Shown here: piece after piece, positions 2,115-62,798 of the stretch | Layout: each line of letters starts with the position of its first letter | Numbering within the stretch: position 1 is the first letter of the stretch | Assembly: GCF_036711975.1 (NCBI RefSeq) | Contig: NC_091967.1 | Span: 2,728,001-2,792,000, forward strand | Reading direction: 5' to 3' | Source: Onthophagus taurus | Taxonomy: Eukaryota > Arthropoda > Insecta > Coleoptera > Scarabaeidae | DNA length: 64,000 nucleotides | Notes under the pieces: generated by a model | The model's input: only the letters and a program-made list of their open reading frames with translations | Database searches by the model: none | Told to the model about the DNA's origin: nothing | Made by a program: the position numbers and the translations under genes

Positions 2115-3780
2115 ATGGAATATCCAAATACCCCCTTTAAAAGCGACTTTAACACTGAAATACTAACGAAAACGCACTGCGATGACGCTTGTCAAGTAAA
2201 AACTTGGGGAATTCCTATTCGGTTCAGTTGGTTGCACTTAATTTTCCTTTCGATTTTAGGAGGTTGATTCAAATTCTGATGAGTTGGAGGGTTTGTTGAA
2301 ATGGTTGTGTTCAACACCGAATATTACTTCTTTAAGGGTTAATACGCTTACTAACGACGTTGAGGATGTTTTAAATTTAATTAAAGCATATTTGAATGAT
2401 AATGTAAGTATAAACAAAGAAATATTAATCTAATTTAATTTCAATGAAAATTCATAGATGGCGAAAACAACAAATTTGAAATTTTAATTAATATAATTTT
2501 TAGAATATCAAAGTAGAAATTCATCCAATTTTAAAAGAAGTAATAATTATTCATAATATCCCCATAGAACGCTTAGATTTAAATAAAGAAAAACAAGAAG
2601 TTATTATCGATGTTCATTGTGGTGCTTCAGTTTTAAGAGGGGCCCATATTTTCGCTCCTGGGGTAATTGGAATGCAAAAAGGGGCGCAATTAAACGATAA
2701 AGTTAGTGTTTACGTGGATGTTAATAAAAAGTGTAAAAAAGGATTTTGTGATATTTTTAATTTAGGTCGAAAAGTGTTTGTTGGAAATGGTGTTGTTAAA
2801 ATGACACGAAAGGAGTTATTTTGTGATAATAATTCTTTAAAGTAAATTAAATTAACTTAAATAATTAAATGAAAAGACTTACAAAAATGTATTTTAGGGG
2901 AATTGCAATTGAAATGTTGGCTACTATTTCAGGTTGTCCAACTTTAAATATAAACAATTTACCAACCGGTTCATGTATTTTACAAAATTTGCCATCGATA
3001 ATTTGCGTTTATTTACTTGCGCCTAAACCAAACGAGGTTATTTTAGATATGTGTGCAGCTCCCGGGCATAAAACAACACATATAGCAGCTTTAATGGAAA
3101 ATAAAGTAATTTTTTTAGTTGGATATTCTTTAATTAAAATTGGAATTTTAGGGAATTTTAGTTGCTTTGGATAAGATTCAACCGAAAATTAATAAACTCG
3201 AACGAATTCGTGATGAATTTAAAGCGAATTTTAAAGCATTTCGTGCCGATTCAACAAAAATCTTATTAAAAATCGAAAACAACATGCATTCTTCAAATAA
3301 TGTTTTAAATGGACCTCCTTTTTTAATGGAAAGTTTCGACAGAATCTTATTAGACGCTCCTTGCAGCGCTTTGGGGAAACGACCTCAATTTTTAAACGAT
3401 TCTACAGAAAAAATTATTCGCAGTTTTGTTCCTTTGCAAAGAAAACTATTTGAAAATGTAAAATAAAAGTTTGACATAAAATCCCAAAATAATTTTGTCT
3501 TAATTTTTAGGCGGTTGCATTGTTAAAACCCCACGGAACACTCGTTTATAGTACTTGTACGATCACTTTGGGTGAAAATGAAGGTGTAGTTGCTTGGGCT
3601 CTGAAGAAATTCAAGAATTTGAAGCTTATTGAACCCCCGTCCGAATTGAAATTGGGGTCAAAAGGATGGAAAGGAACTGATTTAAGCGATAAGCATTTGA
3701 GTTACGTGCAACGATTTGATCATTTAAGTGTAGATGTAGACTCTGTCGGTTTTTTTGTTGCTTGTTTTAATAAAAGTTAA
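2115..3780 (+). CDS. NSUN6: tRNA (cytosine-5) methyltransferase NSUN6
   Basis: m5C methyltransferase of the NOL1/NOP2/Sun family; NSUN6 methylates C72 of the tRNA-Cys and tRNA-Thr acceptor stem. Exons 2115-2195, 2260-2403, 2504-2841, 2898-3105, 3152-3457 and 3511-3780 join in phase to 448 residues (human about 469). An embedded PUA domain lies near residues 108-175 (GASVLRGAHIFAPG, KCKKG, VFVGNG), which distinguishes NSUN6 from other NSUNs. The SAM-binding motif DMCAAPGHKTTHIAA is at 238-252. The two catalytic cysteines are Cys328 in DAPCSALG and Cys375 in YSTCTIT, very close to the human positions. All splice sites are GT-AG and introns are 46-100 nt. The start is the first ATG of an exon opposite Arf1; the first 27 residues are weakly conserved and less certain. 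Confidence 0.93.
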
Positions 3781-4143
3781 CAATAAAATAGATTTTTTGT
3801 AAATAAATAAAATAATTAGTGTTAAGCCCGCCATCTAATAGATAGAAACTAAACTACCGTTGTATAAATAATTGTAAGTGGAAAACTTCCATATACAAAT
3901 TAATTAAAATGGGTTAAAATATTTTAGATTAAAAGAGATATCTAATTTTATCTACGTACATACATAGATATAATTCTAAAAATAATCAAAACGTGTTATA
4001 AATTTAATTGTTAAGCACATAGATGGAGCTAGTACAAATGTCACATTTTTTAAACGTCAAAAAGAAACTTATTTTCTTAAAACATTTCTTCATAAAAGAA
4101 GTGTTAAATTCTTGATTTCAACGTAAATAAAGTAATATTAATA
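3781..4143. other. Spacer between NSUN6 and LRRC51
   Basis: About 360 bp of AT-rich DNA between two same-strand genes. It must hold the NSUN6 3' UTR and the LRRC51 promoter. No repeat or RNA gene was seen. Confidence 0.5.
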
Positions 4144-5565: not shown

Positions 5566-5942
5566 GTTTTATTTTAATATTAATATAAATACAAATTTTT
5601 AAATTAATAATATATTACCAACCTAAATTCTTGTAACTATTTCATAACCTCCAAATACTTGAAACGTCAAAACAACTTTTTTGCAATCATATGGAAGAAA
5701 AAAATTTAACGTAGTTTACTATTTTAAACCTTTTGCGATAACTATACTATTAAAAAAACGTTAAGAATTTAAATTACGTTGCTAAAAGCGAATAGTTTCA
5801 CGGTAAGAGACGTGGCATTAATTCAAAAATGTAAATAAAAAGCTTTTGCGTTGGCGTATTTGTAAGTGAATAATTTTATTGGTATTGTTGATAACAAATT
5901 GTTAAGAGATAAAAATTTGAGATGTTCGATTGAAAAGGAAAG

Positions 5943-7186: not shown

Positions 7187-10100
7187 TTACAACTGAACAT
7201 CAGCAAACTTAGGACTGACAGTAATCTTACTTCTATTCGTTTTTCTCAAACTCCCCAATATATTCAACATTTCACTCATTGCTTTCGGCGTTTCCCTTTC
7301 TTTTTTACCAGAATCACTTTTTCTTTTTTTCAAGGTAAACATCCCCGTTTTAATTTGATTAATAATATCGTCATTAACTCCGTTTACGGCAGGTTTTTTC
7401 GTTTCATCAATTTCCGGACAAGAATCTATGCAAGTTTCTAATGGTACTAAAGAATTCTTCTTTTTTGTCCGTAATGGTGCTGTTGGTGGAGCTAAGGATG
7501 TTAGAGGTGGAGGTGGTGGTGGGGGGGGTGCTACAAAGGGAAGAGGTGGTGGTGGTGGTGGCGGAATCGTAATTGATTCTTTTTCGGTTTCTTCTAACTT
7601 TTTTAATGCGTGATCTAACTCAGTTTCGACTAACTTCAAACGTTCCTCTAAGATTTCTACTTGAGAATTAGATTCTTGTTGGTCTAACTTATCCTAAAAG
7701 AAGTAAATTTTAATGGTTAAAATAAACAAAAAATATTTATGTAGTACCTGAAGCGCAGTTATTTCTAAGTTATGTTTATTTCTTTCTTCTTCAATCGTTC
7801 TTTTTAATTCTTCAATTTCAAAGAGTAACATTTCATCAAAACCTTCATCCGAGTTAATTCCTTGCATTAAAACAGTGCTTTGATGAGCCAAGACGTTTCT
7901 TTCTTTTTTAAAGTTATCCGCTTCTTTTCTAAAAAAAAATTTCCCTTAAAAATTTTTATGAATTAATTTTTAATTTTTTACCTTAATCTAACAGCTTCAT
8001 CTTTTTGTATTTCCTCAGATTGTTTCGTTTCTTCCAAATCTTTCTGCAACATCTTTGATATTCTCAATAATTGTTCATTTTCTCTTTGAATTTCGATTAT
8101 TTTCGCTTCCATTTCTTTCGTTTTTTTCTTTTCCGTTTCGAGATCTTGACTGAGATTAATATTTTGTTCTATCGTTTCAAATTCTAATAATTTAGCTGCG
8201 TTTAATTCAGATTGTAACCTCCCGATTTCAACGCTTAGTTGTTTAACAGATTCCCTTAAATTTTCTAAATCATGATCACCGCTTGAATCGTCTGGATCAA
8301 CTCCTTCATCCACATAATCTACGTCTAAATGAAGTGTTCGTCTTCTCAACACTTTATTTTCTCTGTACCAATTACTCGCATCACTTAAAGCCCTATTAAA
8401 AAAGTGATTGTTGATTTCAATTATAGGACAAAATTAAATAATTAGATCTTACATATGCATTGCTCCCGTTTCTGTTTCATATTTATTCTTTAGCATGTCA
8501 TATTCTTGAAATAAACTTTTTGAAACCGTTGTTAACTTGGTTAAACTTTCGTTTTTTTCGAATAATTCCGTTTCGAGTTCTTCATTTTTGTTTTGGACGT
8601 TGTTGTATTGCTTCTCTAATTCCAAGTAATTTCGTATATCTTAAAAAAAAATAGAAAAAATCATTTTAAATAATGAAAAATGTTTATTATAATTACTTCG
8701 TGTGTATAAACCGAGCATTTTGTTGTAATTTTCTTTTAGATACTAATTAAATTTTGATTTATTTTGACGCAAAATTGACAATAATTTTGATAAATAACAG
8801 AACAATTTTTATTTATTTTGTAACATAGTAAACGCAGATAATAATTTTCTTTTAAGAAATTTTCATTGCTTTTAACAACTTAATAATGTTCCAACAGGAA
8901 GAATCTATTAAAAGTGTAATCTCTAAACATCCCATTACATCACTTATCAAATACATGATTTCTTTTCCACAAAAACAGATTAAAGTTGTAGTTGCACTCG
9001 CAATGAATTCAAATGAACAAAGTGCGTTGACTTTTAAGCTATCTATTCCAGTAACCATTTCCGTTTTGTACAAAGCTTCCCGTTTCTTTCTTCCGAGTCA
9101 GAATAGGATAAAATTATTTTCAAAGCAATGTATGGTTTATGTTAATCTTTAAAAAAATCTGTTAATAATGAAGAAAGGTTAAGATATGTTTTAATAGAAT
9201 TTCTTTTGTGGTTATATCAACCGGTAAATAATACAGTAACACCTTTAAGTAACGTTCCTATTGTTGAACAGCATCTTTTAATGGTAATCGTGACGACATC
9301 AAGCGGTTCTTTCACTTTACTGAGACAGTCACTTGGTGATATAGAATTTCAGACGCGTGTAAAATGAGAGACGAGGAAAACGATTTTAATTTTTTGAATT
9401 TGTCTTGAATTCCTATTCAAACTTACATTTACAAACAATACAATGAATTTCACTTAAAATGCAATATACAAAAATAATTTTCTATAGAGTAAGTAGGAAA
9501 AAGGGGGAATTTTTGAATACAGGCCTCATCACCCTTCGAAAGTAGCAAACTCCTTCGTTTTGATGTTAATCACAAAGTCTCCTTAGAAAAAAAATTAAGT
9601 TTCTACGAAAGCCATACATTTTAGATATAGGCATGTAATGACAAAGTTCTCTTATTTCTCAACGTACAGCTTGGAAAGGAAAAAGTTGAGGTTGCCATTT
9701 AAAAAAATTAAGTTTTCGACTTTTGGGAAATTCGGCGCAAATTTCTGACCACCCTGTATAATTTTTTTTTAATTTTTTCAAGTGTTATGTAAGCTATGAG
9801 TCCTCTCTGTGCAAACCCTGAGAATATTTGGCTGGACTCGAGTGTAATTTCGAAAAATTATTGTTATGGTGAAGGGTTGCATCTGTCAAAATTTTTGAAA
9901 AAACTGAAATAATTCAAAAATGGTGCACTCTAGACATAATATGATGATTTATATCAAATTATATTAACCCTTTGTATCCCGGCGGTACTTTAAAGTACCG
10001 GTAGTTTTAAACACTCATTTTAAACTGTAGTCATCTATTCGGCGCATTTAGAACTATCGGTACTTTCTACTAAGTTTATACGAAAATATAAGTTTTATTG

Positions 10101-13100
10101 CAACCTTTTTTTTCTCAATATTTTTCCAATCCAACCAAACAAGTATTATACATCATTTTAAAGAGAAAGCTTTGAGCTTTAATTTAGAACAAGTCTCATT
10201 CCTTAATTTCAATAAATACGACTTCCAGGAATTTTTAAATTAGCATCTTTTTTGACACTTTTAGTTTATACGAAAATGTAAGTTTTGTTTCAACATTTTT
10301 TTTCTCAATATTTTTCCAATCCAACCCAACAAGTATTATACATCATTTTAAAGAGAGAGCTTTGAACTTTAATTTAGAACAACTCTCATTCCTTAATTTC
10401 AATAAATACGGCTTCCAGGAATTTTTAAATTAGCATCTTTTTTGACACTTTTAGTTTATACGAAAATGTAAGTTTTGTTTCAACATTTTTTTTCTCAATA
10501 TTTTTCCAATCCAACCCAACAATTATTATATATCATTTTAAAGAGAAAGCTTTGAGCTTTAATTTAGAACAAGTCTCATTACTTAATTTCAATAAATACG
10601 GCTTCCAGGAATTTTTAAATTAGCATCTTTTTTGACACTTTTAGTTTATACGAAAATGTAAGTTTTGTTTCAACATTTTTTTTCTCAATATTTTTCCAAT
10701 CCAACCCAACAAGTATTATACATCATTTTAAAGAGAAAGGTTTGAGCTTTAATTTAGAGTAAGTCTCATTCCTTAATTTCAATAAATACGGCTTCTAGGA
10801 ATTTTTAATTTATCATTTTTTTTGACACTTTTAGGTTGTACAAAAATGTAAGTTTTGTTTCAACATTTTTTTTCTCAATATTTTTCCAATCCAACCCAAC
10901 AATTATTATATATCATTTTAAAGAGAAAGCTTTGAGCTTTAATTTAGAACAAGTCTCATTACTTAATTGCAATAAATACGACTTCCAGGAATTTTTAAAT
11001 TAGCATATTTTTTGAGACTTTTAGGTTATACGAAAATGTAAGTTTTATTTCAACATTTCTTTTCTTAATATTTTTCCAATCCAACCCAACAATTATTATA
11101 CATCATTTTAAAGAGAAAGCTTTGAGCTTTAATTTAGAACAAGTCTCATTCCTTAATTTCAATAAATACGACTTCCAGGAATTTTTAAATTAGCATCTTT
11201 TTTGACACTTTTAGTTTATACGAAAATGTAAGTTTTGTTTCAACATTTTTTTTCTCAATATTTTTCCAATCCAACCCAACAAGTATTATACATCATTTTA
11301 AAGAGAGAGTTTTGAACTTTAATTTAGAACAACTCTCATTCCTTAATTTCAATAAATACGGCTTCCAGGAATTTTTAAATTAGCATCTTTTTTGACACTT
11401 TTAGTTTATACGAAAATGTAAGTTTTGTTTCAACATTTTTTTTCTCAATATTTTTCCAATCCAACCCAACAATTATTATACATCATTTTAAAGAGAAAGG
11501 TTTGAGCTTTAATTTAGAGTAAGTCTCATTCCTTAATTTCAATAAATACGGCTTCCAGGAATTTTTAATTTATCATTTTTTTTGACACTTTTAGGTTGTA
11601 CAAAAATGTAAGTTTTGTTTCAACATTTTTTTTCTCAATATTTTTCCAATCCAACCCAACAATTATTATACATCATTTTAAAGAGAAAGCTTTGAGCTTT
11701 AATTTAGAACAAGTCTCATTCATTAATTTCAATAAATACGACTTCCAGGAATTTTTAAATTAGCATCTTTTTTGACACTTTTAGTTTATACGAAAACGTA
11801 AGTTTTGTTTCAACATTTTTTTTCTCAATATTTTTCCAATCCAACCCAACAAGTATTATACATCATTTTAAAGAGAGAGCTTTGAACTTTAATTTAGAAC
11901 AACTCTCATTCCTTAATTTCAATAAATACGGCTTCCAGGAATTTTTAAATTAGCATCTTTTTTGACACTTTTAGTTTATACGAAAATGTAAGTTTTGTTT
12001 CAACATTTTTTTTCTCAATATTTTTCCAATCCAACCCAACAATTATTATACATCATTTTAAAGAGAAAGCTTTGAGCTTTAATTTAGAACAAGTCTCATT
12101 CCTTAATTTCAATAAATACGACTTCCAGGAATTTTTAAATTAGCATCTTTTTTGAGACTTTTAGGTTATACGAAAATGTAAGTTTTATTTCAACATTTCT
12201 TTTCTTAATATTTTTCCAATCCAACCCAACAATTATTATATATCATTTTAAAGAGAAAGCTTTGACCTTTAATTTAGAGTAAGTCTCATTCCTTAATTTT
12301 AATAAATACGACTTCCAGGAATTTTTAAATTAGCATCTTTTTTGACATTTTTAGGTTATATCAAAATGTAAGTTTAATTTCAACATTTTTTTTCTCAATA
12401 TTTTTCCAATCCAACCCAACAATTATTATACATCATTTTAAAGAGAAAGCTTTGAGCTGTAATTTAGAATAAGTCTCATTCCTTAATTTCAATAAATACG
12501 GCTTCCAGGAATTTTTAATGTAGCATCTTTTTTAACACTTTTAGGATATACGAAAATGTAAGTTTTATATCAATATTTTTTTCACAAACTTTTGACTTCT
12601 TGGGACACAAAGGGTTAAAATTTAGCGGGGATCTCGAAAATTCAATAAAAATTGGTACATCCCATTTAAAATAATGAAGTTTTGGTGTATTTCCGGTATA
12701 TCAGAAGTTGGAGAAAACTGAAAATATTTTAGCTGAACCTCGGATAAACGCTATATAAAAATTTTAGAAAAATAGTGTGCCACATACATATAGACGCAGC
12801 TCGTCGTGACAGACTCTGTACATACATTTAGTATTAAACAAACACTAAGGAAAAAACATTAACATAAACTTTCGAATTAAAACTTAATTGAAAAATATGT
12901 TATTGATTTGATGGTACTTTATTGTATTGCGAAAAAATACTTTCTTTTTTATATAACAAACAATTCTATCAACACGATGAAGTAAATGTTTATAAATAAT
13001 AAAAAAAATCCTATAAATTGGATGATAAGATAACAACTAATTCATATCGATTTTTTTAACACTAAAAAACTAGAATCAACTTGTACGTCATCCTCAATTT

Positions 13101-13525
13101 CTAAATTTAATTTCTAATTCGTTATTGTTTCTGCTGAAGGTTTTATGACGACACAAAAACGGATGTTTTATAACAATCAATTTAAATAATAATACCGTGC
13201 GTCCTAACGGTATTAAAATAAAAATTGTACAATAAAAAATTTATCAAAAACACACATTGATTAAGTTAGTGCTAAAATAATACTTATTTTGTAACTTACT
13301 TTTTTCGTTTTGTGATAACAACATTTTCCTCCGATTTTCTGCTTCCTCGTATTTGAATTTCCATCGTTCGACTTCCCGTTCGAGTGGTGACGTCGTCGGC
13401 GAAGGTGGAGTTTTTAACGTTGGCGAAATTTGTCCATTTCGACTTAAACTTCTTCTTAATGGAATGTTGGTAGTTCCATTTCCTATGCAGGAAGCTACCG
13501 TTCGATTTGTTGCAACAGTGGTCAT
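7187..13525 (-). CDS. SHTN1: Shootin-1-like coiled-coil protein
   Basis: Homologue of shootin-1, a cytoskeletal linker that in vertebrates couples actin flow to adhesion molecules during axon growth. Minus-strand exons 13525-13300, 8639-8453, 8392-7982, 7928-7748 and 7693-7187 join in phase to 503 residues. Heptad-rich coiled coil covers most of residues 50-375. Aligned landmarks are VLAHQSTVLMQGINSDEG, then LKRTIEEERNKHNLEI, then a polyproline segment (about 379-404, two runs of 7-8 Pro). The C-terminal block (DDIINQIKTGMFTLKKRK, MSEMLNILGSLRKTNRSK) matches shootin's WH2-like and conserved tail regions. The unusually long first intron (about 4.6 kb) holds a satellite-bearing transposon. The start at 13525 is the first ATG of exon 1; an upstream noncoding exon is possible because an acceptor-like site lies near 13575. 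Confidence 0.85.
8640..9963. other. Shootin-1 intron 1, distal part, with dispersed repeats
   Basis: Noncoding stretch between exon 2 and the TTAA transposon. It contains one copy of a roughly 55-nt dispersed motif (about 9437-9496) and a transposon-end-like ACCACCCTGTATA near 9750. The 88-codon plus-strand ORF at 8886-9152 has no recognisable family and is not called. The stretch 9770-9960 and the matching tone beyond 12619 suggest that the TTAA element landed in an older repeat. Confidence 0.5.
9964..12618 (+). mobile_element. TTAA-bounded piggyBac-like nonautonomous element carrying a satellite array (copy 1)
   Basis: The element begins TTAACCCTTTGTATCCC at 9964 and ends GGGACACAAAGGGTTAA at 12618, giving inverted termini of about 15 bp with TTAA at both ends. 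That is the target-site signature of the piggyBac superfamily. Immediately inside the left end is an inverted pair around GGTACTTTAAAGTACC. Almost all of the 2.65 kb interior is a tandem array of 190-bp units. There is no transposase ORF. A second copy, in opposite orientation and with the same two distinct ends, lies at 34794-37274. It sits in intron 1 of the shootin-like gene. Assignment to piggyBac rests on the TTAA and CCCTTTG ends only. Confidence 0.8.
10070..12570 (+). repeat. 190-bp satellite array, about 13 units
   Basis: Head-to-tail units of 190 bp, each with CCAATCCAACCCAACAA, a CATCATTTTAAAGAGA block, TTCAATAAATACG and TTCCAGGAATTTTTAA. The same landmark recurs at about 10143, 10333, 10523, 10713, 10903, 11093, 11283, 11473, 11663, 11853, 12043, 12233 and 12423, so the period is exact. 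Variant types recur in order: a GAGAGAG/AACTCTC type at units 2, 7 and 10, and an AGTAAGTC type at units 4, 8 and 12. This points to block amplification by unequal exchange. Edge units are more divergent. The unit is the same sequence, inverted, as the array at 34.9-37.0 kb. Confidence 0.93.
12619..13299. other. Shootin-1 intron 1, proximal part
   Basis: AT-rich noncoding DNA between the TTAA element and exon 1. No ORF or clear repeat was recognised. Confidence 0.45.
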
Positions 13526-13589
13526 ATTTATTAGTTTTTCTTCTATAATTTTAATGGTTTTTTTTACATAACCTAAAAAATAAAATTAA

Positions 13590-13974: not shown

Positions 13975-16900
13975 CTATACTCTGTTTTTAAACCACGAGG
14001 AGTATTTTAAATTTGTCACCAGATTGACCTTGGGAATAATTAAAGAATACCTGTCCCACTTAAAAATCGATGATTTTTTTTTTAATCGGTAGGAAATGAC
14101 TCAAAAGATGTGTTAATGATAAAAAAAAAGTGCGGAAAAGTGTAGTACTTACCGAAAATTCACTTTAAAGTTGCGATTTGACGTTTTTTTTTGGAAGTTC
14201 AAAGCAATGTTAAATATGCATTTTCGTATTAAATCCTAACCTGAAATTGTTTAATTTATACCCGCGCACAAAATCAAAAGTTATTTTCACTAAACTTATT
14301 GAGATTACAACATATTTACGGATGAAAACCTTATTTCTTAGGCTATCAATGCATAACGACAATTACCTGTCGTTAGATAGAATTGTTTCTACCAAATGTG
14401 TGTTAATAGACTTTATGTTAATAGATTGTGTATCAATTGATCTGTCAAACGACTAAAATATCTTTAAATTGTAAATATCAATGATAAATAAGTATAGTAG
14501 CTTATTTAATAATAGTTTGCTTAAATTAAAATAGTTATTTATTAAAAAAGACATGTGTATACATGGTTACAAAATAAAAATAAATAAATAACCCGTGTGA
14601 CGATAGCAACAAACTGTGCATTTAACTAAATGACAATTACAACTGACAACACAAGCAATGTTAACCATGTATCTCTCGTATTAAATCCTAACCTCAAATT
14701 GTTTAATTTATACCCACGCACTAAATAAAAAGTTATATTCACTAAACTTGTTGAGATTACAACATAATTATACATAATAACACCTATGTGAAGTTAGCCC
14801 CCAATTAAATAGCATTTTACATGTATAGTATTTTGATTATAACATGAAAACCAGTGAACCGATTTCGATAAATAATGTCTCATTCGAAAGCTTAATCCTT
14901 GGCCAATACGAAAGTGGAAATGCCCGTGAAAATTTGAAAACTCTTTCGAATTTCGCTAAAACGTCAAAATAAAGCGAAGATACACGAGAATAACACAAAA
15001 TTGACCTTCTTTAAGTGGTGATAACTCGTAAACGATGTACCCGATGATCAAAATCTATACGTCACTCGATTCGTCATAGTGTCTTCTATCGGAATCACAA
15101 AATGCTTGATTTCAATTCACTCCCGCTAAGTTTATACAGCCCTCGGAATGACACCATCTTCGGCTCGTTGTTTATGCACGCGTGAACGCTCGTGCTATAA
15201 ATTAATTTTTAATTTTAACTAAATCGACTATAATTAGAGAACAGTTTGACGGATTTTAATGTTTTATATCTCAATCGAAAGTTTGTGTCTGGCAGAATGC
15301 TGTTGTCGAAATGCCCGATTCGAAATATTTAAAGATTTTGATTAAAACACAACAAACGAATTAATTAAACACATCAATTATCTCCGTAACTAATTGACCA
15401 ATTTTAGTCATCAAAATCTCGGTCGAAAGTATGATCTGCAATGAATGCGAAGGTGGAAATGCCCGATTTCAAAATTTACTAATTATGTGCGTACAGCCAT
15501 TGAAATGACCCCGCGAGAGATTTCGAGTCGGGCATTTCCACTTTCGTATTGGCCAAAGATTAAGCTTTCGAATGAGATTTTGATTATCAAAATTGGTTGA
15601 CTAGTTTTCTTGTTATAATCAAAATACTATACATGTAAAATCCTATCTAATTGGGGACTAGGAAAATTTGAAGTTAACCTCGCATAGGTCATAATGACTA
15701 AGTGCCTGTCGTTACATAGACTGTGTGTCTATTAACTGTGTACAAGAGCGTCGCCAGATAGGAGCAAAGATAGATTCGAAAAAAGAAATTGAATAGAATA
15801 TAAGATACAAATAGATTCTAAAAATCTATTTGAAATGTTTATAATCTGTTATCGCATTTAAATAGAGAGCATGAGAGTTAAATAAAAATTTGTTATTAAA
15901 AGACTTCAAACCACATAAATATTATAATTAGGATAATTATTAGTTAGTTTAACGTTATTTTGGAACTTAATAACACTTATTATTGATGAAAATCCCTTTC
16001 GTAGTTACAAAGTTTTAACATCAAAAGTTCATAACGTAGGGTGTATGACGTAAGATGGGTTTATGAGAAAGTTGAACTTGTTCATTCATAAGTAGATAGT
16101 TATTATTATCTTTATAATTTGTTACACGAATGAAAAAGCTCAACTCCTCCATAATTTATATTATGTTCAGTCTTTATGTGGTGCTGAAAAATATTGGAAT
16201 TTTCTTTAGTTTTATGTTTCTAGTTTTCAGCCTCCTCCACATTTGTCCGATAGCAACAAACTTGTATCCGTAATTTTTTATCTACTTTCTTAGCTGATAT
16301 CTTTCTTATTATTAGAGATAATTCGAGATAATAATTAGAGATTCTTTCTCTATCTAAAACCGGTCTTTGTCTGTCCATAAGTTAATACTAAGATCAATCT
16401 GTACTTAAACTACAAAGCGTTGGCTCTGTACTTAGATTAAATAGCTTAAAATTACCAAACTTCAAGCCTTTGTGCAATTGTTATCAAACTGATATTTAAA
16501 AAACTATTATCATACTCGGAAAGAGCGCCCTTTAAATTTATTATATCTTAACCCGGGTTTTCGTTGGTAAATGGGTCTATCGGCGTCATGCTTAATTCGC
16601 CCTTCATATACATCCCTACACGCAAAAACGCTTAATTACTATTCCTTTAAACAAGTTTCTTATTTGATATTGGGAAAACTATAGAAGTATAGATCTATCT
16701 TATCTACAATTTGCTGCTCTTTCTAATGGTGTATAACACGCGGCTATCGCTGCTTCGTTATAGAGTTTTTTCCTGGTGATATAAGAAAGTTATTGATCCC
16801 AACAATGTTTAAAAGTAGCTAAAACGTGTGAATTTGGTAATTTTTTGACCAAAAACGTCCTTGTGTAAGTCTATAACTTCATGATATACTTCTATAGTTT

Positions 16901-18606
16901 TCCTCATATCAAATATGTAAGAAAGTTGTTTAGAGGTAGAGCAATTAAACGTTTCTGTATATAGAGATGTATATTAAAGGTGATTTAACCATGATGCTAA
17001 TTGATATTGACCAACAAAAACCCGGATTAAGATATTTGAAGGAGCGTTCTTTCTGATTGTGAACACAGTTTTTTAAAATTCGGTTTGATAACAATTGCAC
17101 AAGGGCTTGAAGTTTGGTAATATTAAGCTATTTTACGTACAGAGCGGTGTTCTTCATCTTTTATTGATTTTAATATTAACATATCGGCAAACGAGGACCG
17201 ACGATTTCATAAAGAAAGAATCAAGCTTTCATATGGTGCATTTAGTGTTCTGCTATATCTAATAATAAGAAAGATATCAGCTAATAAAATAGATAGGAAA
17301 TTGCGGATAAAAATTTGTTGTTGGAAGGTTTGTTGCTATCGTCACATCGTCAATCGGGCATTTCCACTTTCGTATTGGCCAAGGATTAAGCTTTCGAATG
17401 AGACATTGTTTATCGAAATCGGTTCACTGGTTCTCATGTTATAATTAAAATACTATACATGTAAAATTCTGTTTAATTGGTGACTAACTTCACATAGGTG
17501 TCATTATGAATAATTATGTTGTAATCTCAACAAGTTTAGTGAAAATAACTTTTTATTTAGTGCCTGGGTATAAATTAAACAATTTGAGGTTAGGATTTAA
17601 TGCGAGAAAATACATGGTTAACATTGCTTGTGTTGTCAGTTGTAATTGTCATTTGGTTAAATACACAGTTTGTTGCTATCGTCACACGGGCTATTTATTT
17701 ATTTTTATTTTGTAACCATGTCTTTTTTAATAACTATTTTAATTTAACTAAACTACTATTAAATAAGCTACTATACTTATTTATCATTTATATTTACAAC
17801 ATAAAGATTGCAAAGAGCTTTCAGTCATTTGACAGATCAATTGATACACAATCCATTAACACAAAGTCTATTAATACACATTTGGTAGAAACAATTCTAT
17901 CTAACGCCATTTAATTGTCGTTCTGCATCGATAGCCTAAGAAACAAGGTTTTCATCCGAAAATATGTTGTAATCTCAACAAGTTTAGTGAAAATAACTTT
18001 TTATTTTGTGCGTGGGTATAAATTAAACAATTTCAGGTTAGAATTTAATACGAAAATGCAATTTTAACATTGCTTTTAACTTCCAAAAAGAAACGTCAAA
18101 TCGCAACTTTAAAGTGATTTTTCGGTAAGTACTACACTTTTCCGCACTTTTTTTTTATCATTAACACATCTTTTGAGTCATTTCCTACCGATTAAAAAAA
18201 AATTCATCGATTTTTAAGAGGGACAGCTAATCTTAATATATGCCTTGACCTTGCACGTGAATGGTGAATGCGAGGAAGGTTCACACACAGGAAATTTTAA
18301 ATTTTGAATTTGAAGGTTAGGTTATTGACAATTCGACAGTTTCATGTCATTATTGTAAATTTTGTGTTCTTAAACCCTTCTTTATTATATTTTGAAATAA
18401 ATACACTCATAACTTCAATGTTAATTTGTATGTTTAGTGTTGACGATAACAAAGGAAAATAAATACAATAATAAGTAAATAAATAAATAATAATAATTAT
18501 TAATTTAAATTTACCGCCAAAATATCTAGTGATATTTTCTGGTGATTTTTCCTAGTGTAAATCTGACTTTCGCGTTTACTCCTCCTGGTTTAAAAACAGA
18601 CTATAG
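13975..18606 (+). mobile_element. Foldback-type element with nested long inverted repeats, about 4.6 kb
   Basis: The left arm starts near CTATACTCTGTTTTTAAACC (13975) and its inverted partner ends near GGTTTAAAAACAGACTATAG (18606). The arms match over most of 13975-14930 and 17345-18230, including TTTGACAGATCAATTGATAC inverted as GTATCAATTGATCTGTCAAA. A further inner inverted pair lies at about 16240-16700 and 16870-17340. A third partial inverted copy of the arm segment GGGCATTTCCACTTTCGTAT lies at about 15530. The right arm carries about 300 bp absent from the left (18240-18530). No transposase-like ORF is present, so it is nonautonomous. The ends are not certain to the base, and no superfamily can be assigned. 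Confidence 0.7.
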
Positions 18607-19310
18607 GGATGGTTGACATGTCAAAACAAAACTAACCTTACCCAATATAAAAATAGATTTATAAAAAAATGTATATCTCAAAAAACTAAAAGTGATTTTT
18701 CAACACGGATACTATTATTAAAAAGAAGATACTTTAATTAAACATTTATGCAGATTTTGTAATGATTTGCCAAGTAATTTATTTTTTACAATTTTTTAAA
18801 CGTAATCGGTAACAAAATGAAATCGTTATAAATTTCGATTAAATTCGGATAACTAGAAGTGACAGTGGCAGTATCCCGCCAAATCTGACGCCATATTATA
18901 GCGAGTTACCAAGGTATGTTGCTATTGGTGGTAAAGATTTAAAACTTTCTAGTTCTAGGTCTAGTGTTAGTTCTACACTGACCGGCAAAAAAAACCGGCC
19001 ACTAAAATGTAGCCACAATTTCAAAGCTGGCTTACTCGCGAACCACTCATTCGATTTTGATGATTCTTTTTTTGATCGAAAGGTTGATTCGTCTGTAATA
19101 ATACTGCGATAGAAATTTTTATTCGGATATTAATTTGAGCATATACACGGTGCAAGAATGAGAAAACCTTTTTTTCTCGAAATTTGTAATACCCTGTGGG
19201 GTGCAGCTGCTACAGCAGAGGGTGTTAACTGGAATCAAACGGTAGCCCAATCTTTTCTAAGCATTTTGTTTTTTTATTCACTCTATTATCTCTGTTACTA
19301 ACGAAGATGC

Positions 19311-19924: not shown

Positions 19925-20610
19925 AACAATTAATAATAACACGAAAATTAATAGTGTGTGTGCCACCCACGAGCTAAAATAACCTCATGTAGTCGATGCG
20001 GCATCGTACTGATTAGGTTAGTAATTGATTCCTGAGGAATTGCGGCAAGCTCTTTTTCAAAAGCAATTCGTAACTCTTGAAGGGTGTTCGGTAGGACAGG
20101 ACGACGACGAATGCGTCTCTAAAGTTGGTCCCAAAGATATTCTACAGGGTTAAGGTCCGAGCTGCACGCTAGCCACTCTATCCGTTCAATACCCTACTTC
20201 ATCAAGATATTCGTTAACCACACGTGCTACGTGCGTCGCGCATTGTCATGCATTAGCATGAATCCGTCACCAAGAAAATGGGAATAGAACCTCCATGGAA
20301 AGGTACTCTTTCCGAAATTGTGGAGGTCGCAAACCTTTCATTACGACGTCTCCACACTCATTCTCGACCATGAGAGAAAATCGGGACTCGTCAGTGAAGA
20401 GCACCTTACCCCATTGTTCCATTCCTTAATTCATATGTACGCGCCCAAATTGAAGACGTGCTCGCCAATGTCTCTGGAGCAGTCGAGGTCTTTTGGCAGG
20501 TCTTCTTGCAGTCAGATCACCTTCATCAAGTCTTTGATGAATAGTTCTTTCACTTACGTCAACCCCACGCACCATTTGAAGACAATCCCGAAAAAAAAAA
20601 AAAAAACAAG
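19925..20610 (-). pseudogene. Decayed Tc1-type transposase (right half of composite)
   Basis: Read on the minus strand, this gives MVRGVDVSERTIHQRLDEGD, then KVLFTDESRFSL with the first catalytic Asp, VVNEYLDEVG, and the C-terminal RRRPVLPNTLQELR and IPQESITNLISTMPHRLHEV with HTHY before the stop. It is interrupted by several stops and frameshifts. It covers more of the protein than the plus-strand fragment and is clearly the same family. Confidence 0.75.
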
Positions 20611-20919
20611 ATGTTCAGAAAAGATTAGCCTACCGTTTGATTCCAGTTAACACCATCTGCTGTAGCAGTTGCACCCCGCAGAGTATTACAAATTCCGAGA
20701 AAAAGAAGTTTTTCTCATTCTTGCAGTCCGTATATGTCCAAATTAAAATCTAAATGAAAGTTTCTATCGCAGGATTATTACCGAAGAATCAACCTTTCGA
20801 CCAAAGAAACAATCATCAAAATCGAATGCGCGGTTCGCGAGAAAGCCAGCTTTGAAGTTTTGGCTAACTTATAGTGGCCGGTTTTTTTTGCCGGTCAGTT
20901 TAGTTTTACACTAGCACTG

Positions 20920-29350: not shown

Positions 29351-32300
29351 TCAAGACTTCCATTGGCCATTTATAATGTTGATGGCGTCCAGAGGAGCTG
29401 CGTATTGAACCTCCGAATCTAAAAATACAAATTTAAGATAATAAAATAAAAACGATTAAATAGAAAAAACAATTTCATCAATAAGCAAACGAACATATAA
29501 TTAAAAAAAAACGAAGGTAAGTAAATATAAAGACAATTAAGATAATTAGAAATGTATACAATTCCTTAAAACAACATATCCTCATTTTCTTACGCGATTT
29601 ATGGAGTATCAAAGTTTTTAAGTTCGCTAGTTACTGAAATAAAAAAAATAAAAAGTGAAATCTATATTTTTTTGTATTATTCATATTATCTAATCTAATG
29701 ACGCTAACTTTATTGCAGGGTTTAGTTTGAAACTTGAAAAACAACCAAATTTAATTTCTTTAAAAGTATTACTTATTATTGAGTTCATATTGATAAAGAA
29801 GCTTTAAGTTTAGCAAACGTCATATTTGACAGTTACTTGACATTGAAAATTCAAATTTATTATTTAAATAATTAAAACATCGATATTAACATTTCCAAGT
29901 CGAATTAAAGTTGATATAAAATCTTTAAGTTTGGTAAACGTGATAAGTCGATGCTGAAACGTCATATTTGACAGTTATTTGTCATAGAAAACTCAAATTT
30001 ATTATTTAAAACATCGATATTAACATTTCCAAGTCGGTCTCAAATTTATGTAGAAAATATAAGTTTGGTAAACGTCATAAGTTGATGTTGAAACGTCAAA
30101 TTTATTATTTAAATAATTAAAACATCGATATTATCATTTCCAAGTCGAATTAAAGTTGATATAAAATCTTTAAGTTTGGTAAACGTGATAAGTCGATGCT
30201 AAAACGTCATATTTGACAGTTGCTTGTCATTAAAAGGTCAAATTTATTATTTAAATAATTAAAATATGGATATTAACATTTCCACGTCAAGTTCAAGTTA
30301 ATGTAGAATCTTTAAGTTTGATAAACGTCGTAAGTTGATGTTGAAATGTCAAATTTATTATTTAAATAATTAAAACATCGATATTAAAATTTCTAAGTCG
30401 AATTAAAGTTGATATAAAATCTTTAAGGTTGGTGAAAATCGTAAGTTGATGTTAAAATGTCATATTTGACAGTTACTTGACATTGAAAAGTCAAATTAAT
30501 TATTTAAATAATTAAAATATCGATATTAACATTTCCAAGTCGAATTAAAGTTGATATAAAATCTTTAAGTTTGGTAAACGTGATAAGTCGATGCTGAAAC
30601 GTCATCTTTGACAGTTGCTTGTCATTAAAAGGTCAAATTTATTATTTAAATAATTAAAACATGGATATTAACATTTCCACGTCAAGTTCAAGTTGATGTA
30701 GAATCTTTAAGTTTGATAAACGTCGTAAGTTGATGTTGAAATGTCAAATTTATTATTTAAATAATTAAAATATCGATATTAACATTTCCAAGTCGAATTA
30801 AAGTTGATATAAAATCTTTAAGGTTGGTAAACGTCGTAAGTTGATGTTGAAATGTCATATTTGACAGTTACTTGACATTGAAAAGTCAAATTAATTATTT
30901 AAATAATTAAAACATCGATATTAACATTTCCAAGTCGAATTAAAGTTGATATAAAATCTTTAAGTTTGGTAAACGTGATAAGTCGATGCTGAAACGTCAT
31001 CTTTGACAGTTGCTTGTCATTAAAAGGTCAAATTTATTATTTAAATAATTAAAACATGGATATTAACATTTCCACGTCAAGTTCAAGTTGATGTAGAATC
31101 TTTAAGTTTGATAAACGTCGTAAGTTGATGTTGAAACGTCAAATTTATTATTTAAATAATTAAAACATCGATATTAACATTTCCAAGTCGAATTAAAGTT
31201 GATATAAAATCTTTAAGTTTGGTAAACGTGATAAGTCGATGCTGAAACGTCATATTTGATAGTTACTTGACATTGAAAAGTCAAATTAATTATTTAAATA
31301 ATTAAAACATCGATATTAACATTTCCAAGTCGGTCTCAAATTTATGTAGAAAGTATAAGTTTGATAAACGTGATAAGTCGATACTGAAACGTCATCTTTG
31401 ACAGTTACTTGTCATTGAAAGGTCAAATTTATTATTTAAATAATTAAAACATGGATATTAATATTTCCACGTCAAGTTCAAGTTGATGTACAATCTTTAT
31501 GTTTGATAAACGTCGTAAGTTGATGTTGAAATGTCAAATTTATTATTTAAATAATTAAAATATCGATATTAACATTTCCAAGTCGAATTAAAGTTGATAT
31601 AAAATCTTTAAGGTTGGTAAACGTCGTAAGTTGATGTTGAAATGTCATATTTGACAGTTACCATATGATAAAAGTAATAAGTTTTTTTGTTATTATAAAA
31701 TACATAAAAAAATGTTTCAATAAAACGTTAACATTATAAGCTTCGATTTATAGAAATTTTTTCATTATTTTTAAGATAAAGAAAATATTAACTTTTATTA
31801 TTTCTACAAAATTGCAACAAAAATATGTACTAAACAACTCTGTACAAACTACCCAAATAAACTACCGTTCTTAATACCAAAATTTAAAGCTAATACAAAC
31901 ACATACTATTTACAATATATTCTCACCATAAAGTTAAAAACAAATTAATGAGAAATAATCCCTTTGCCCTAAATCTACTCTTTACCTTGCGGAGATTTCC
32001 TCATAATGAATTGAAGTGCAGCGTGCACTACACATAAAGATAACGATGATATTCCAAAAATCCTAAACGTCCATACTCCCCCAACTTCTTCCAAGAGTTG
32101 ACCACCAAGCAAACTACCTAATGAGACTCCGACGCCCTCGAAAACAGCACCAAATAAACCCTAACATAAAATAATCAAATTTGTATATTAAAAACCTTTT
32201 AAAATAAACATAATTTTACCTGCATTGTGGTTTCTGTCCCAGGTGGTGCTACTATACTAGCATAAGATGCCATAGCAGCGTAAAATAACCCGTAAGTAAC

Positions 32301-34793: not shown

Positions 34794-37274
34794 TTAACCC
34801 TTTGTGTCCCAAGAAGTCAAACATTTTGAAACTTTGTGACAGAATCAGACAGAATTAAAACGCTATCAAAATACACTCAGTAAAGGCCTTTGAAATAAAA
34901 TTTTAGCAAAATATGCAATCCCCCTATTTTCGCATAGCTAAGTGTCAAAAAAAATGCTAATTCAAAAATTCCTGGAAACCGTGTTTATTGAAAATAAGAA
35001 ATAAACCTTATTTTAAATTGAAGCTTGAAGCTTTCTGTTTAAATCGATCTATAACAATCGATGGGTTGAATTAAAAAAATATTGAGAAAAAGAGTATTGA
35101 GTTAAAACTAACATTTTCGTATAACCTAAAAAAAGATGCTAATTTAAAAATTCCTGGAAGCCGTATTTATTGAAATTAAAGAATGAGACTTATTGTAAAT
35201 TAAAGCTCAAAGCTTTCTTTTTAAAATGATGTATAATAATTGTTGGGTTGGATTGGAAAAATATAGAGAAAAAAAATTTTGAAACAAAACTTACATTTTC
35301 GAATAACCTAAAAATGTTAAAAAGATGCTAATTTAAAAATTCCTGTAAGCCGTATTTATGGAAATTAAGGAATGAGACTTATTCTATATTAAAGCTCAAA
35401 GCTTTCTCTTTAAAATGATGTATAATAATTGTTGGGTTGGATTGGAAAAATATTTTAAAAAAATGTTGAAATAAAACACATTTTCGTATAACCTAAGAGT
35501 GCCAAAAAAGATGCTAATTTAAAAATTCCTGGAAGCCATTTTTATTGAAATTAAGGAATAAAACTTATTTTAAATTAAAGCTCAAAGCTTTCTCTTTAAA
35601 ATGATGTATAATAATTGTTGGGTTGGATTGGAAAAATATAGAGAAAAAAAATTTTGAAACAAAACTTACATTTTCGAATAACCTAAAAATGTTAAAAAGA
35701 TGCTAATTTAAAAATTCCTGTAAGCCGTATTTATTGAAATTAAGGAATGAAACTTATTTTAAATTAAAGCTCAAAGCTTTGTCTTTAAAATGATGTATAA
35801 TAATTGTTGGGTTGGATTGGAAAAATATAGAGAAAAAAAAAGTTGAAATAAAACTTACATTTTCGTATAACCTAAGAGTGTCAAAAAAGATGCTAATTTA
35901 AAAATTCCTGTAAGCCGTATTTATTGAAATTAAGGAATGAAACTTATTTTAAATTAAAGCTCAAAGCTTTCTCTTTAAAATGATGTATAATAATTGTTGG
36001 GTTGGATTAGAAAAATATAGAGAAAAAAAAAGTTGAAATAAAACTTACATTTTCGTATAACCTAAGAGTGTCAAAAAAGATGCTAATTTAAAAATTCCTG
36101 TAAGCCGTATTTATTGAAATTAAGGAATGAAACTTATTTTAAATTAAAGCTCAAAGCTTTCTCTTTAAAATGATGTATAATAATTGTTGGGTTGGATTAG
36201 AAAAATACAGAGAAAAAAAAAGTTGAAATAAAACTTACATTTTCGTATAACCTAAGAGTGTCAAAAAAGATGCTAATTTAAAAATTCCTGTAAGCCGTAT
36301 TTATTAAAATTAAGGAATGAAACTTATTTTAAATTAAAGCTCAAAGCTTTCTCTTTAAAATGATGTATAATAATTGTTGGGTTGGATTAGAAAAATATAG
36401 AGAAAAAAAAAGTTGAAATAAAACTTACATTTTCGTATAACCTAAGAGTGTCAAAAAAGATGCTAATTTAAAAATTCCTGTAAGCCGTATTTATTGAAAT
36501 TAAGGAATGAAACTTATTTTAAATTAAAGCTCAAAGCTTTCTCTTTAAAATGATGTATAATAATTGTTGGGTTGGATTAGAAAAATATAGAGAAAAAAAA
36601 AGTTGAAATAAAACTTACATTTTCGTATAACCTAAGAGTGTCAAAAAAGATGCTAATTTAAAAATTCCTGTAAGCCGTATTTATTGAAATTAAGGAATGC
36701 AACTTATTTTAAATTAAAGCTCAAAGCTTTGTCTTTAAAATGATGTATAATAATTGTTGGGTTGGATTGGAAAAATATAGAGAAAAAAAAAGTTGAAATA
36801 AAACTTACATTTTCGAATAACCTAAAAATGTTAAAAAGATGCTAATTTAAAAATTCCTGTAAGCCGTATTTATTGAAATTAAGGAATGCAACTTATTTTA
36901 AATTAAAGCTCAAAGCTTTCTCTTTAAAATGATGTATAATAATTGTTGGGTTGGATTAGAAAAATATAGAGAAAAAAAAAGTTGAAATCACACCTAATAA
37001 CCATTTATCAAAGAAATACCTTCTTGAACAACAAAATTCAACAGCACCACTTTTCACTAAACTTCTAACCTCACATCTGGATGAATAAGTTTAAAGTGTA
37101 CCTAAAAATCTTACAATGCGGATTGCGACGTTTTTTATACAGATTATTTCTTGTATACACTTGTATAGTAGAAAGTACAGACAGCTCTAAATGCGCCGAA
37201 TAGATAACTACAGTTTAAAATGAGTGTTTAAAATTACCGGTACTTTAAAGTACCGTCGGGACACAAAGGGTTAA
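34794..37274 (-). mobile_element. TTAA-bounded piggyBac-like nonautonomous element carrying a satellite array (copy 2)
   Basis: It starts TTAACCCTTTGTGTCCCAAG at 34794 and ends GTCGGGACACAAAGGGTTAA at 37274. The left end (continuing AAGTCAAA) equals the complement of the right end of copy 1. The right end, with GGTACTTTAAAGTACC and TCTATTCGGCGCATTTAGA in complement, equals the left end of copy 1. This is therefore the same element in inverse orientation, with TTAA at both ends. Near its right end is about 200 bp of non-array sequence (37000-37200) shared in part with copy 1. No transposase is present. Confidence 0.8.
34930..36995 (-). repeat. 190-bp satellite array inside TTAA element, about 11 units
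   Basis: Complement of the unit found at 10.1-12.6 kb, with GATGCTAATTTAAAAATTCC, AAAGCTCAAAGCTTT and TTGTTGGGTTGGATT landmarks. Unit landmarks at about 35226, 35415, 35602, 35792, 35982, 36172, 36362, 36552, 36742 and 36932 give a period of 190 bp in the right part. The leftmost unit (about 35036) is the most diverged, and the seven central-right units are nearly identical, so the array was recently homogenised on that side. There are fewer variant types than in copy 1. Confidence 0.92.
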
Positions 37275-37326
37275 ACTAAAACTAGAACTAACAACTTTCG
37301 GGTTAAGCCGTGGGTTTTTTGAAAAA

Positions 37327-62500: not shown

Positions 62501-62798
62501 GCCGTCTTGAGAGACGTGCGGCTAAACCCGAATGTTTCTAGTTCTAGGTCTAGTGTTAGTTCTCGTTTTAGTGCAATAAAAACATGCAACATAGTGATAT
62601 CTTATGCTAACTAGCGCTACCTACCAATATCACTAAATCTAACACAAGACCTAGAACTAGAATCATTCGGGTTTAGCCGTCTTGAAAGACATGCGGCTAA
62701 ATCCGAATGATTCTAGTTCTAGGTCTTGTGTTAGTTCTAGTGATAGTGCTATTGCAATACTAGAACTGACACTAGACCAAGACCTAGAAACATTCGGA
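59547..62798 (+). repeat. 175-bp palindromic satellite array, about 17 units, in GIPC intron 1
   Basis: GTGATATCTTATGCTAA recurs at about 59785, 59960, 60135, 60310, 60485, 60660, 60838, 61013, 61188, 61363, 61541, 61716, 61894, 62069, 62244, 62419 and 62594. The period is thus 175 bp, or 178 where CTA is duplicated (GAACTACTAAC). Each unit has a palindrome of about 105 bp (AACACAAGACCTAGAACTAG ... CTAGTTCTAGGTCTAGTGTT) centred on GTCTTGAGAGACGTGCGG, plus a 70-bp spacer with GCAATAAAAACATGCAACAT and TAGCGCTACCTACC. Both edges carry altered units, and the 5' edge has two extra palindromes without spacer. The middle units are nearly identical. The same palindrome is dispersed at 5.4, 20.9, 42.8 and 47.0 kb. 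Confidence 0.95.

What the first reader, a model, noticed from the sequence alone, without database searches (positions are those of the whole stretch)
9964..12618. Satellite array carried inside a TTAA-bounded transposon (copy 1)
The array of 13 exact 190-bp units is not free satellite: it is enclosed by inverted ends starting CCCTTTG with TTAA outside both. The unit order shows recurring variant types (units 2/7/10 and 4/8/12), so blocks of three to five units were amplified after the element existed. This is a direct picture of a mobile element acting as the seed and carrier of satellite DNA, here inside a host intron (shootin-1-like gene).
Basis: partly seen in the sequence, partly recalled or inferred. 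Interest (0 to 1): 0.75.

Follow-up and report, generated by a model that had tools for sequence, protein, structure and literature searches.

The report
Satellite DNA array inside a jumping gene
A stretch of repeated 190-letter DNA units in this insect-like genome sits inside a crippled cut-and-paste jumping element, which has scattered it around the genome with 3 to 17 units in eleven closely related copies, showing how a mobile element can carry and vary satellite DNA.

Summary
Window 9964-12618 is a TTAA-bounded element with 13-bp inverted ends and 13 units spaced exactly 190 bp. Its ends recur at 312 and 378 places, control 0. Of 20 arrays on one contig taken in list order by unit alone, 15 have both ends, 4 one, 1 none; six more, picked for lacking a listed end, gave 4 with one end or part of one and 2 with none. 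All 26 adjoin element sequence. Eleven close relatives of copy 1 hold 3-17 units; edges are conserved, interiors differ. Copy 1 sits in a dispersed repeat whose empty copies read across one TTAA. The carrier is a piggyBac-superfamily deletion derivative: an array-free parent relic exists, and the array interrupts the transposase 3' coding region. A relative with an open 577-aa frame and similar ends is present. Corrections: unit 12 does not group with 4/8; no unit-free carrier found; shootin-1 unconfirmed. Longer arrays elsewhere were not read. The kind is known (satellite-bearing MITEs); my searches listed no piggyBac case.

The parts
9964..9967 (+). TTAA target-site duplication, left side of copy 1
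   Evidence: single TTAA in 5 of 6 empty-site copies read
9968..10072 (+). left end of copy 1: 13-bp inverted repeat CCCTTTGTATCCC, then palindrome CGGTACTTTAAAGTACCG (9983-10000); joins the array directly
   Evidence: six places 100% identical over 109 bp, this copy included; parent relic 173-253 aligns at 90%
10073..12542 (+). 13 tandem units of 190 bp
12543..12582 (+). partial 14th unit
12583..12614 (+). right end of copy 1 with inverted repeat GGGACACAAAGGG (12602-12614)
12615..12618 (+). TTAA target-site duplication, right side of copy 1
9818..9963 (+). left flank: dispersed repeat that received copy 1
   Evidence: joined-flank query aligned across the junction at 40 of 40 scored places, 279 candidates
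12619..12768 (+). right flank: same dispersed repeat continuing
34794..34797 (-). TTAA, right side of copy 2
34798..34939 (-). right end of copy 2 (non-unit sequence; aligns to parent relic positions 3974-4090)
34940..36987 (-). array of copy 2, 11 units of about 190 bp
36988..37270 (-). left region of copy 2: inverted end plus leader sequence of the parent (relic positions 173-423)
37271..37274 (-). TTAA, left side of copy 2
13244..13585 (-). ORF, probable 5' exon of the host gene upstream of copy 1
   Evidence: no Pfam match
7978..8433 (-). coiled-coil-like ORF, probable next exon of the host gene
   Evidence: weak ATG16 match, below cut-off

Best explanation
It is a non-autonomous piggyBac-superfamily transposon whose interior is a satellite array. 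A piggyBac parent once encoded a transposase. A 190-bp tandem array came to lie in an interval of about 42 bp in the 3' coding region (inferred from breakpoints; how it got there is unknown). Internal deletions then removed the 5' coding part, next the 3' coding part, and finally nearly all unique sequence, leaving two short ends around the array (copy 2 and then copy 1 types; breakpoints shown, order inferred). The ends were mobilised in trans by a piggyBac transposase into TTAA (target site shown; the enzyme is inferred, candidate L058/L059). Unit number rose and fell inside the element by host recombination or replication slippage within the array, sometimes in blocks of several units, while in the copy 1 subfamily the edge units mostly stayed (pattern shown, process inferred).
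For: End counts 312 and 378 against control 0. Of the first 20 unit-selected arrays in list order on contig C1, 15 have both ends with TTAA, 4 one, 1 none; six further arrays chosen because no end was listed near them gave 4 with one end or part of one and 2 with none; all 26 adjoin element sequence beyond the units. Transposase remnants: an L023 fragment matches PF13843 at 5.4e-10; the C-terminal Cys-rich remnant aligns to the end of a 593-aa open-frame piggyBac transposase of this genome at 8e-07 in a search of four sequences. An array-free parent relic (L039+L055) has the same subterminal ends, leader and coding pieces and no 190-bp unit. Recurrent breakpoints in relic coordinates: left 418-426, right 3512-3517 or 3974, copy 1 type 253 and 4045-4061, L016 left 3470. 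Copy 1 subfamily: 11 of the 14 places at 98% or more, 0-1 differences over 109 bp at the left end, 3,5,5,6,6,6,8,9,13,13,17 units; first units 97.3% and each of the last two 97.6% identical between copies, against 94.7% for inner units and 95.0% for first against last. Nine-unit block repeated in L037: lag-9 identity 97.3% against 86.2-88.5% at other lags. Empty sites of copy 1. A relative with an open 577-aa frame, ends TTAA-CCCTTTGTCTACC...GGTATACAAAGGG-TTAA, one end matching the copy 1 left end at 89% over 35 bp.
Against: No intact parent was seen: among listed matches of the C-terminal search, copies at 61-86% identity are broken or short, and the nearest long open frame is 49% identical (150 of 1029 candidates scored). 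Edge conservation holds for the copy 1 subfamily; in the 16 other copies the last unit is the least alike (85.2%, first 93.1%, inner 91.6%), which mixed right junctions may explain. The empty sites are other copies of a repeat, not the same locus in another individual; copy 2's empty site was not shown. Contig C1 holds 100 of 2216 exact unit hits in its first 40.56 Mb, so it is unit-poor, and long arrays elsewhere were not read. Unit-number change might partly reflect assembly error.
Confidence: 0.88

Rival explanations
1. A pre-existing free satellite was captured: the 190-bp unit existed first as ordinary satellite DNA and a piggyBac element picked up a few units; today's long arrays are the source, not the product.
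For: The unit does not resemble the parent relic beyond 15-17 bp. Long arrays, about 25 to 60 units if continuous, exist on C10, C2 and C5; for those on C2 and C5 (C2:2500754-2509116, C2:5108462-5111500, C5:1801053-1805802, C5:8552462-8557211, C5:9936207-9939019) no exact end is listed nearby (such lists can miss places, as one search did).
Against: All 26 arrays read adjoin element sequence, array orientation relative to the ends is the same in each, and the seven class A/B left junctions printed are near-identical, which points to one founding event. No exact end was listed either for L022, L025 and L027, which do have both ends.
Confidence: 0.25
2. The array is a free satellite into which separate TTAA elements inserted, or the ends are chance neighbours.
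Against: 15 of the first 20 arrays are enclosed by both ends in fixed orientation with TTAA; copy 1's flanks rejoin to an uninterrupted repeat; ten complete copy lengths are 764+190n within 9 bp.
Confidence: 0.02
3. The tandem array is maintained because it helps transposition (for example as a spacer or a cluster of binding sites), so unit number is under selection rather than neutral drift.
For: No unit-free carrier was seen: smallest read copy 3 units, and 45 exact end pairs are 1092 bp or longer.
Against: The pairs came from listed exact ends on four contigs; shorter copies could be missed; no functional test.
Confidence: 0.1

Closest known systems
miDNA4, Tc1/mariner MITE with internal satellite, Xenopus tropicalis (Scalvenzi and Pollet 2014; known here only through passages of PMC12628747 and PMC9659126)
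   Same: MITE with one to many satellite monomers inside; expansion inside the element and loss of ends proposed to give free arrays
   Different: Tc1/mariner, not piggyBac; here a parent relic and a series of internal deletions are visible and the array interrupts the transposase gene
Xstir/Xmix MITE, Xenopus (Hikosaka and Kawahara 2004; passages of PMC12628747)
   Same: tandem repeats riding on a MITE
   Different: repeats thought to come from the MITE's own interior; here the unit does not match the parent relic
Tandem repeat-containing MITEs of Donax trunculus and pearl/CvA elements of bivalves (named in PMC12628747 and PMC9659126; the Donax paper was not held)
   Same: short terminal parts around a variable satellite-like core (recalled)
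   Different: other superfamilies and hosts; details recalled, not read
Tetris foldback transposon, Drosophila virilis (PMC4079207, start of abstract in listings; passage in PMC10218199)
   Different: foldback element; the derived satellite is TIR-220, from its terminal repeats (recalled for the location), not an internal array
CMITE, coral piggyBac-related MITEs (PMC2872659, abstract)
   Same: piggyBac-related non-autonomous elements that form tandem arrays
   Different: whole MITEs are arrayed; here the array is inside one element
TCsat23 in Rehavkus-1_TC, Tribolium castaneum (PMC10218199, passages)
   Same: beetle satellite in short arrays (mostly five and eight monomers) inside a DNA transposon
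   Different: Rehavkus element with arrays in its inverted termini

Membership tests
piggyBac superfamily | TTAA target-site duplication | tested here: met
   both sides of both window copies and of the 15 both-ended arrays among 26 unit-selected arrays read; single TTAA in 5 of 6 empty sites read, TTGA in the sixth
piggyBac superfamily | short terminal inverted repeats beginning CCCT/CCCTTT | tested here: met
   CCCTTTGTRTCCC; beetle piggyBac motifs CCCT and CCCTTT reported in PMC12732532 (passages)
piggyBac superfamily | DDE_Tnp_1_7 transposase in the element lineage | tested here: met
   remnant in L023, PF13843 E 5.4e-10; relic L039/L055 aligns to a 593-aa piggyBac transposase of this genome. 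Copies 1 and 2 align to the relic only in its non-coding ends
piggyBac superfamily | C-terminal Cys-rich domain | tested here: met
   remnant aligned to the C-terminus of the L031 transposase, 8e-07 in a search of four sequences; Pfam and PDB gave no piggyBac match for it
piggyBac superfamily | seamless excision by the transposase | not testable with these tools
   needs a transposition assay
MITE | non-coding, non-autonomous, many copies, short | tested here: inconclusive
   non-autonomous by anatomy and many copies, but 764 bp to over 3.3 kb long because of the array
satellite-bearing MITE (miDNA4 type) | variable number of satellite units enclosed by transposon ends | tested here: met
   3 to 17 units behind left ends differing by 0-1 of 109 bases, 11 copies
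satellite-bearing MITE (miDNA4 type) | same unit also as free arrays without ends | tested here: inconclusive
   3 of 26 read arrays lack both termini (L016, L037, L038) yet keep internal element sequence; longer arrays elsewhere unread
classical satellite DNA | long heterochromatic or centromeric arrays | not tested
   arrays read are dispersed and short; no cytology, and the assembly may omit long arrays

The most novel reading that the evidence does not exclude
One genome holds every stage of a satellite's life: array-free piggyBac parent, array lodged in the transposase gene, deletion derivatives that shrink to 'ends plus array', carriers that spread units to many chromosomes, and long end-less arrays with higher-order repeats that have left the transposon behind. 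On this reading the piggyBac carrier is the sole origin and dispersal route of the 190-bp satellite.
Probability: 0.4. Interest if true: 0.75.

Novelty: new member of a known kind. Interest (0 to 1): 0.55.

Why it matters
How satellite DNA is born and dispersed is a long-standing question, and proposed transposon-to-satellite routes often rest on end products. Here a relic parent, intermediates and carriers with 3 to 17 units coexist in one genome, and the young subfamily has left ends differing by 0-1 base in 109, so rates and block sizes of array change could be measured against a shared starting point. It also gives a TTAA-based way to tell carried from escaped arrays.

Tried and rejected
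Chance ends: rejected (reversed-pattern control 0 for both end patterns). Free satellite with unrelated neighbours: rejected for the copies read. Unit derived from the parent's own sequence: no support, only 15-17 bp matches. Unit as reading frame: each of the six frames printed carries stops. Array as an intron of the transposase gene: considered because the unit holds GTAAGT and a pyrimidine-AG stretch; not pursued, since the relic has an uninterrupted frame across that point. Four other piggyBac families (L029-L032) as the donor: three show other end pairs (CCCTCG, CACGTTAACGACC, CCTTYCAGTACACGCG), and in L031 no end pair was found in the stretch fetched. Further ends with the same 13-bp repeat but other neighbours: 25 places, several looking like variants of the same ends. 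Copy 2 empty site: relatives match across the join position but without the TTAA there, so not counted. Searches that gave nothing useful. The Tenebrio molitor satellitome paper (PMC13192020, passages) was checked for a 190-bp satellite; the term '190' does not occur. Species was not identified; 'insect-like' is inference from gene content and recall.
Full report
CHECKING THE OBSERVATION. At 9964-12618 there is TTAA, an inverted end CCCTTTGTATCCC, an array at 10073-12582 of period 190 (13.2 copies, 94% matches, 0% indels), and the matching end GGGACACAAAGGG followed by TTAA. All 12 spacings between unit anchors are 190 bp. Pairwise unit identity is 91.6-99.5%. A second copy lies at 34794-37274 in the opposite orientation with 11 units.

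THE FAMILY. With up to two mismatches the left end occurs at 312 places and the right end at 378; the reversed-pattern control gives 0. A 35-base piece of the unit occurs at 5866 places with up to three mismatches and 2216 exactly. I read 26 arrays on contig C1. The first 20 (L009-L028) were taken in list order because they hold an exact unit match, whatever their ends: 15 have both ends with TTAA (L009, L010, L012-L015, L017, L019-L022, L025-L028), four have one (L011, L018, L023, L024), and L016 has none. Six more (L033-L038) were chosen because no end was listed near them: L033, L035 and L036 have one end, L034 shows part of a right end running off the fetched stretch, and L037 and L038 have none. 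The three without termini still adjoin element sequence: transposase pieces in L016 and L037, leader sequence in L038. Array orientation relative to the element is the same in all 26. The list had missed three clusters that one search shows, so such lists are not complete. Units per array by BLAST: the 15 both-ended copies 5 to 19; the three without termini 25, 27 and 23, two of which were picked for lacking ends.

UNIT NUMBER VARIES INSIDE THE CARRIER. One search gave 14 places at 98% or more to copy 1's left end; I used 11 (copy 1 included; L007 was incomplete and two were not fetched). Left ends differ by 0-1 of 109 bases. They have 3, 5, 5, 6, 6, 6, 8, 9, 13, 13 and 17 units. Ten complete lengths are 764 + 190n to within 9 bp; the eleventh (L002) was cut by my fetch just before its right end. 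When units are typed over 140 bp, eight of eleven arrays end in the same two types and seven of eleven begin with the same type. Mean identity between copies is 97.3% for first units, 97.6% for each of the last two, 94.7% for inner units and 95.0% for first against last. Edges are therefore largely inherited and interiors reshuffled. This edge pattern is not seen in the 16 other copies, where classes with different right junctions are mixed: first units 93.1%, last units 85.2%, inner units 91.6% between copies and 94.2% within a copy. L037 shows a nine-unit block repeated (lag-9 identity 97.3% against 86.2-88.5% at other lags; weaker in L038, 92.1%), so multi-unit blocks are duplicated. Of 81 listed exact left ends on C1, C2, C3 and C5, 45 pair with a listed exact right end within 8 kb; lengths run from 1092 to 6906 bp (median 1898), so no unit-free copy appeared in that set.

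EMPTY SITES. Copy 1's flanks, joined with a single TTAA, match across the join at 40 of 40 scored places (279 candidates). Six were read: five have TTAA at the join and one has TTGA. These are other copies of the same dispersed repeat, so they show clean insertion into it, not polymorphism at this locus. Copy 2 gave no clear empty site.

ORIGIN OF THE CARRIER. Several copies keep, after the array, a Cys-rich C-terminal transposase remnant, and L023 keeps a piece before the array that matches PF13843 at 5.4e-10. The Cys-rich remnant aligns to the C-terminus of a 593-aa piggyBac frame of this genome at 8e-07 in a search of four sequences; Pfam and PDB did not recognise it. A relic at C11:568900-573200 has the subterminal left end, leader, transposase pieces, Cys-rich region and subterminal right end but no 190-bp unit; it lacks the outermost bases of both ends and is interrupted by about 2 kb that I did not identify. 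Aligning the relic to the array copies gives recurrent breakpoints: left 418-426 with right 3512-3517 in one class; left about 422 with right 3974 in another, which includes copy 2; 253 and 4045-4061 in the copy 1 class; and L016 left at 3470. A few copies differ (L010 left 230, L013 255 and 3999, L019 right 3546, L036 left 334). L016 and the 3512 class bracket about 42 bp of 3' coding sequence where the array sits, and the seven left junctions printed from the 422 classes are near-identical. The order parent, array in the gene, loss of 5' coding, loss of 3' coding, ends plus array, is inferred from this nesting.

WHAT MOVES IT. A search with the relic's 197-aa C-terminal frame listed many broken or short relatives and one close relative with a long open frame, 577 aa at 49% identity (150 of 1029 candidates scored). 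That element (L058/L059) is 2811 bp, bounded by TTAA, with ends CCCTTTGTCTACC and CCCTTTGTATACC, and one end matches the copy 1 left end at 89% over 35 bp, palindrome included. It, or a relative, is a plausible present-day partner; this is inference. Of four other piggyBac families sampled, none showed these ends.

LIMITS. C1 up to 40.56 Mb holds only 100 of 2216 exact unit hits in about 14% of the assembly. A search with a consensus dimer (40 of 244 candidates scored, 292 matches, not all listed) shows long arrays on C10, C2, C5 and C11. Some have element parts near them by coordinates: C10:9529737-9533312, C11:34105696-34109678, C5:7594997-7596518 and C3:20920326-20921465. Others have none in my partial lists, and I could not read them. 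They may be escaped arrays or the original satellite; this is the main open point.

COMPARISON. Satellite-bearing DNA transposons are known: Xstir and miDNA4 MITEs in Xenopus, bivalve elements, Tetris, and TCsat23 in Rehavkus (passages of PMC12628747, PMC9659126, PMC10218199; search listings 9, 52). A beetle piggyBac survey (PMC12732532, passages) holds neither 'MITE' nor 'tandem'; a coral paper (PMC2872659, abstract) reports tandem arrays of piggyBac-related MITEs. My text searches listed no piggyBac element with an internal satellite array of this kind, in an open-licence library only, judged from titles and abstract starts. The kind is therefore known, and this is a new and unusually complete member.

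Noticed in passing
window 59646-62749: A second tandem array, 175-bp unit, 17.7 copies at 94%. Pieces of the unit align in both orientations at the same places, and similar pieces are scattered through the window and many fetched loci, so it may be another mobile element with a tandem form.
   Followed up: partly
window 37274-37320; L018 6585-6681; L038 about 1915-1950: Sequence resembling the 175-bp unit lies beside copy 2 and at the broken ends of two carriers (L018 by BLAST; the other two by eye).
   Followed up: no
window 29815-31661: Array with nested periods 111, 142, 253 and 395 bp, a higher-order repeat.
   Followed up: no
window 14043-14926 and 17355-18234; 18973-19278 and 20597-20903: Long inverted repeats, 92% and 87% identical, likely foldback or other terminal-repeat elements.
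   Followed up: no
window 52508-53035: ORF that looks like a Tc1/mariner-type transposase fragment (recognised from memory; ORF).
   Followed up: no
genome G000: Very rich in piggyBac transposases: 116 scored of 3102 candidates, many with open frames of 500-650 aa; eight places share the same 272.7-bit score and 576-aa frame, suggesting a very young family.
   Followed up: partly
genome G000 contigs C1 and C3: Contig lengths are exactly 44,240,000 and 30,320,000 bases, which suggests cut or padded contigs.
   Followed up: no
L037 (G000:C1:40557000-40566000) and L038: Arrays with a nine-unit higher-order repeat (about 1699 and 1693 bp by hit spacing), both lacking transposon termini.
   Followed up: partly
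190-bp unit, e.g. window 11213-11402: The unit holds GTAAGT and a pyrimidine-rich stretch ending in AG, so arrays in introns might offer splice-like sites. Not tested.
   Followed up: no
G000:C10: Long 190-bp arrays seem concentrated on contig C10 between 8.6 and 11.7 Mb in the listed matches.
   Followed up: no
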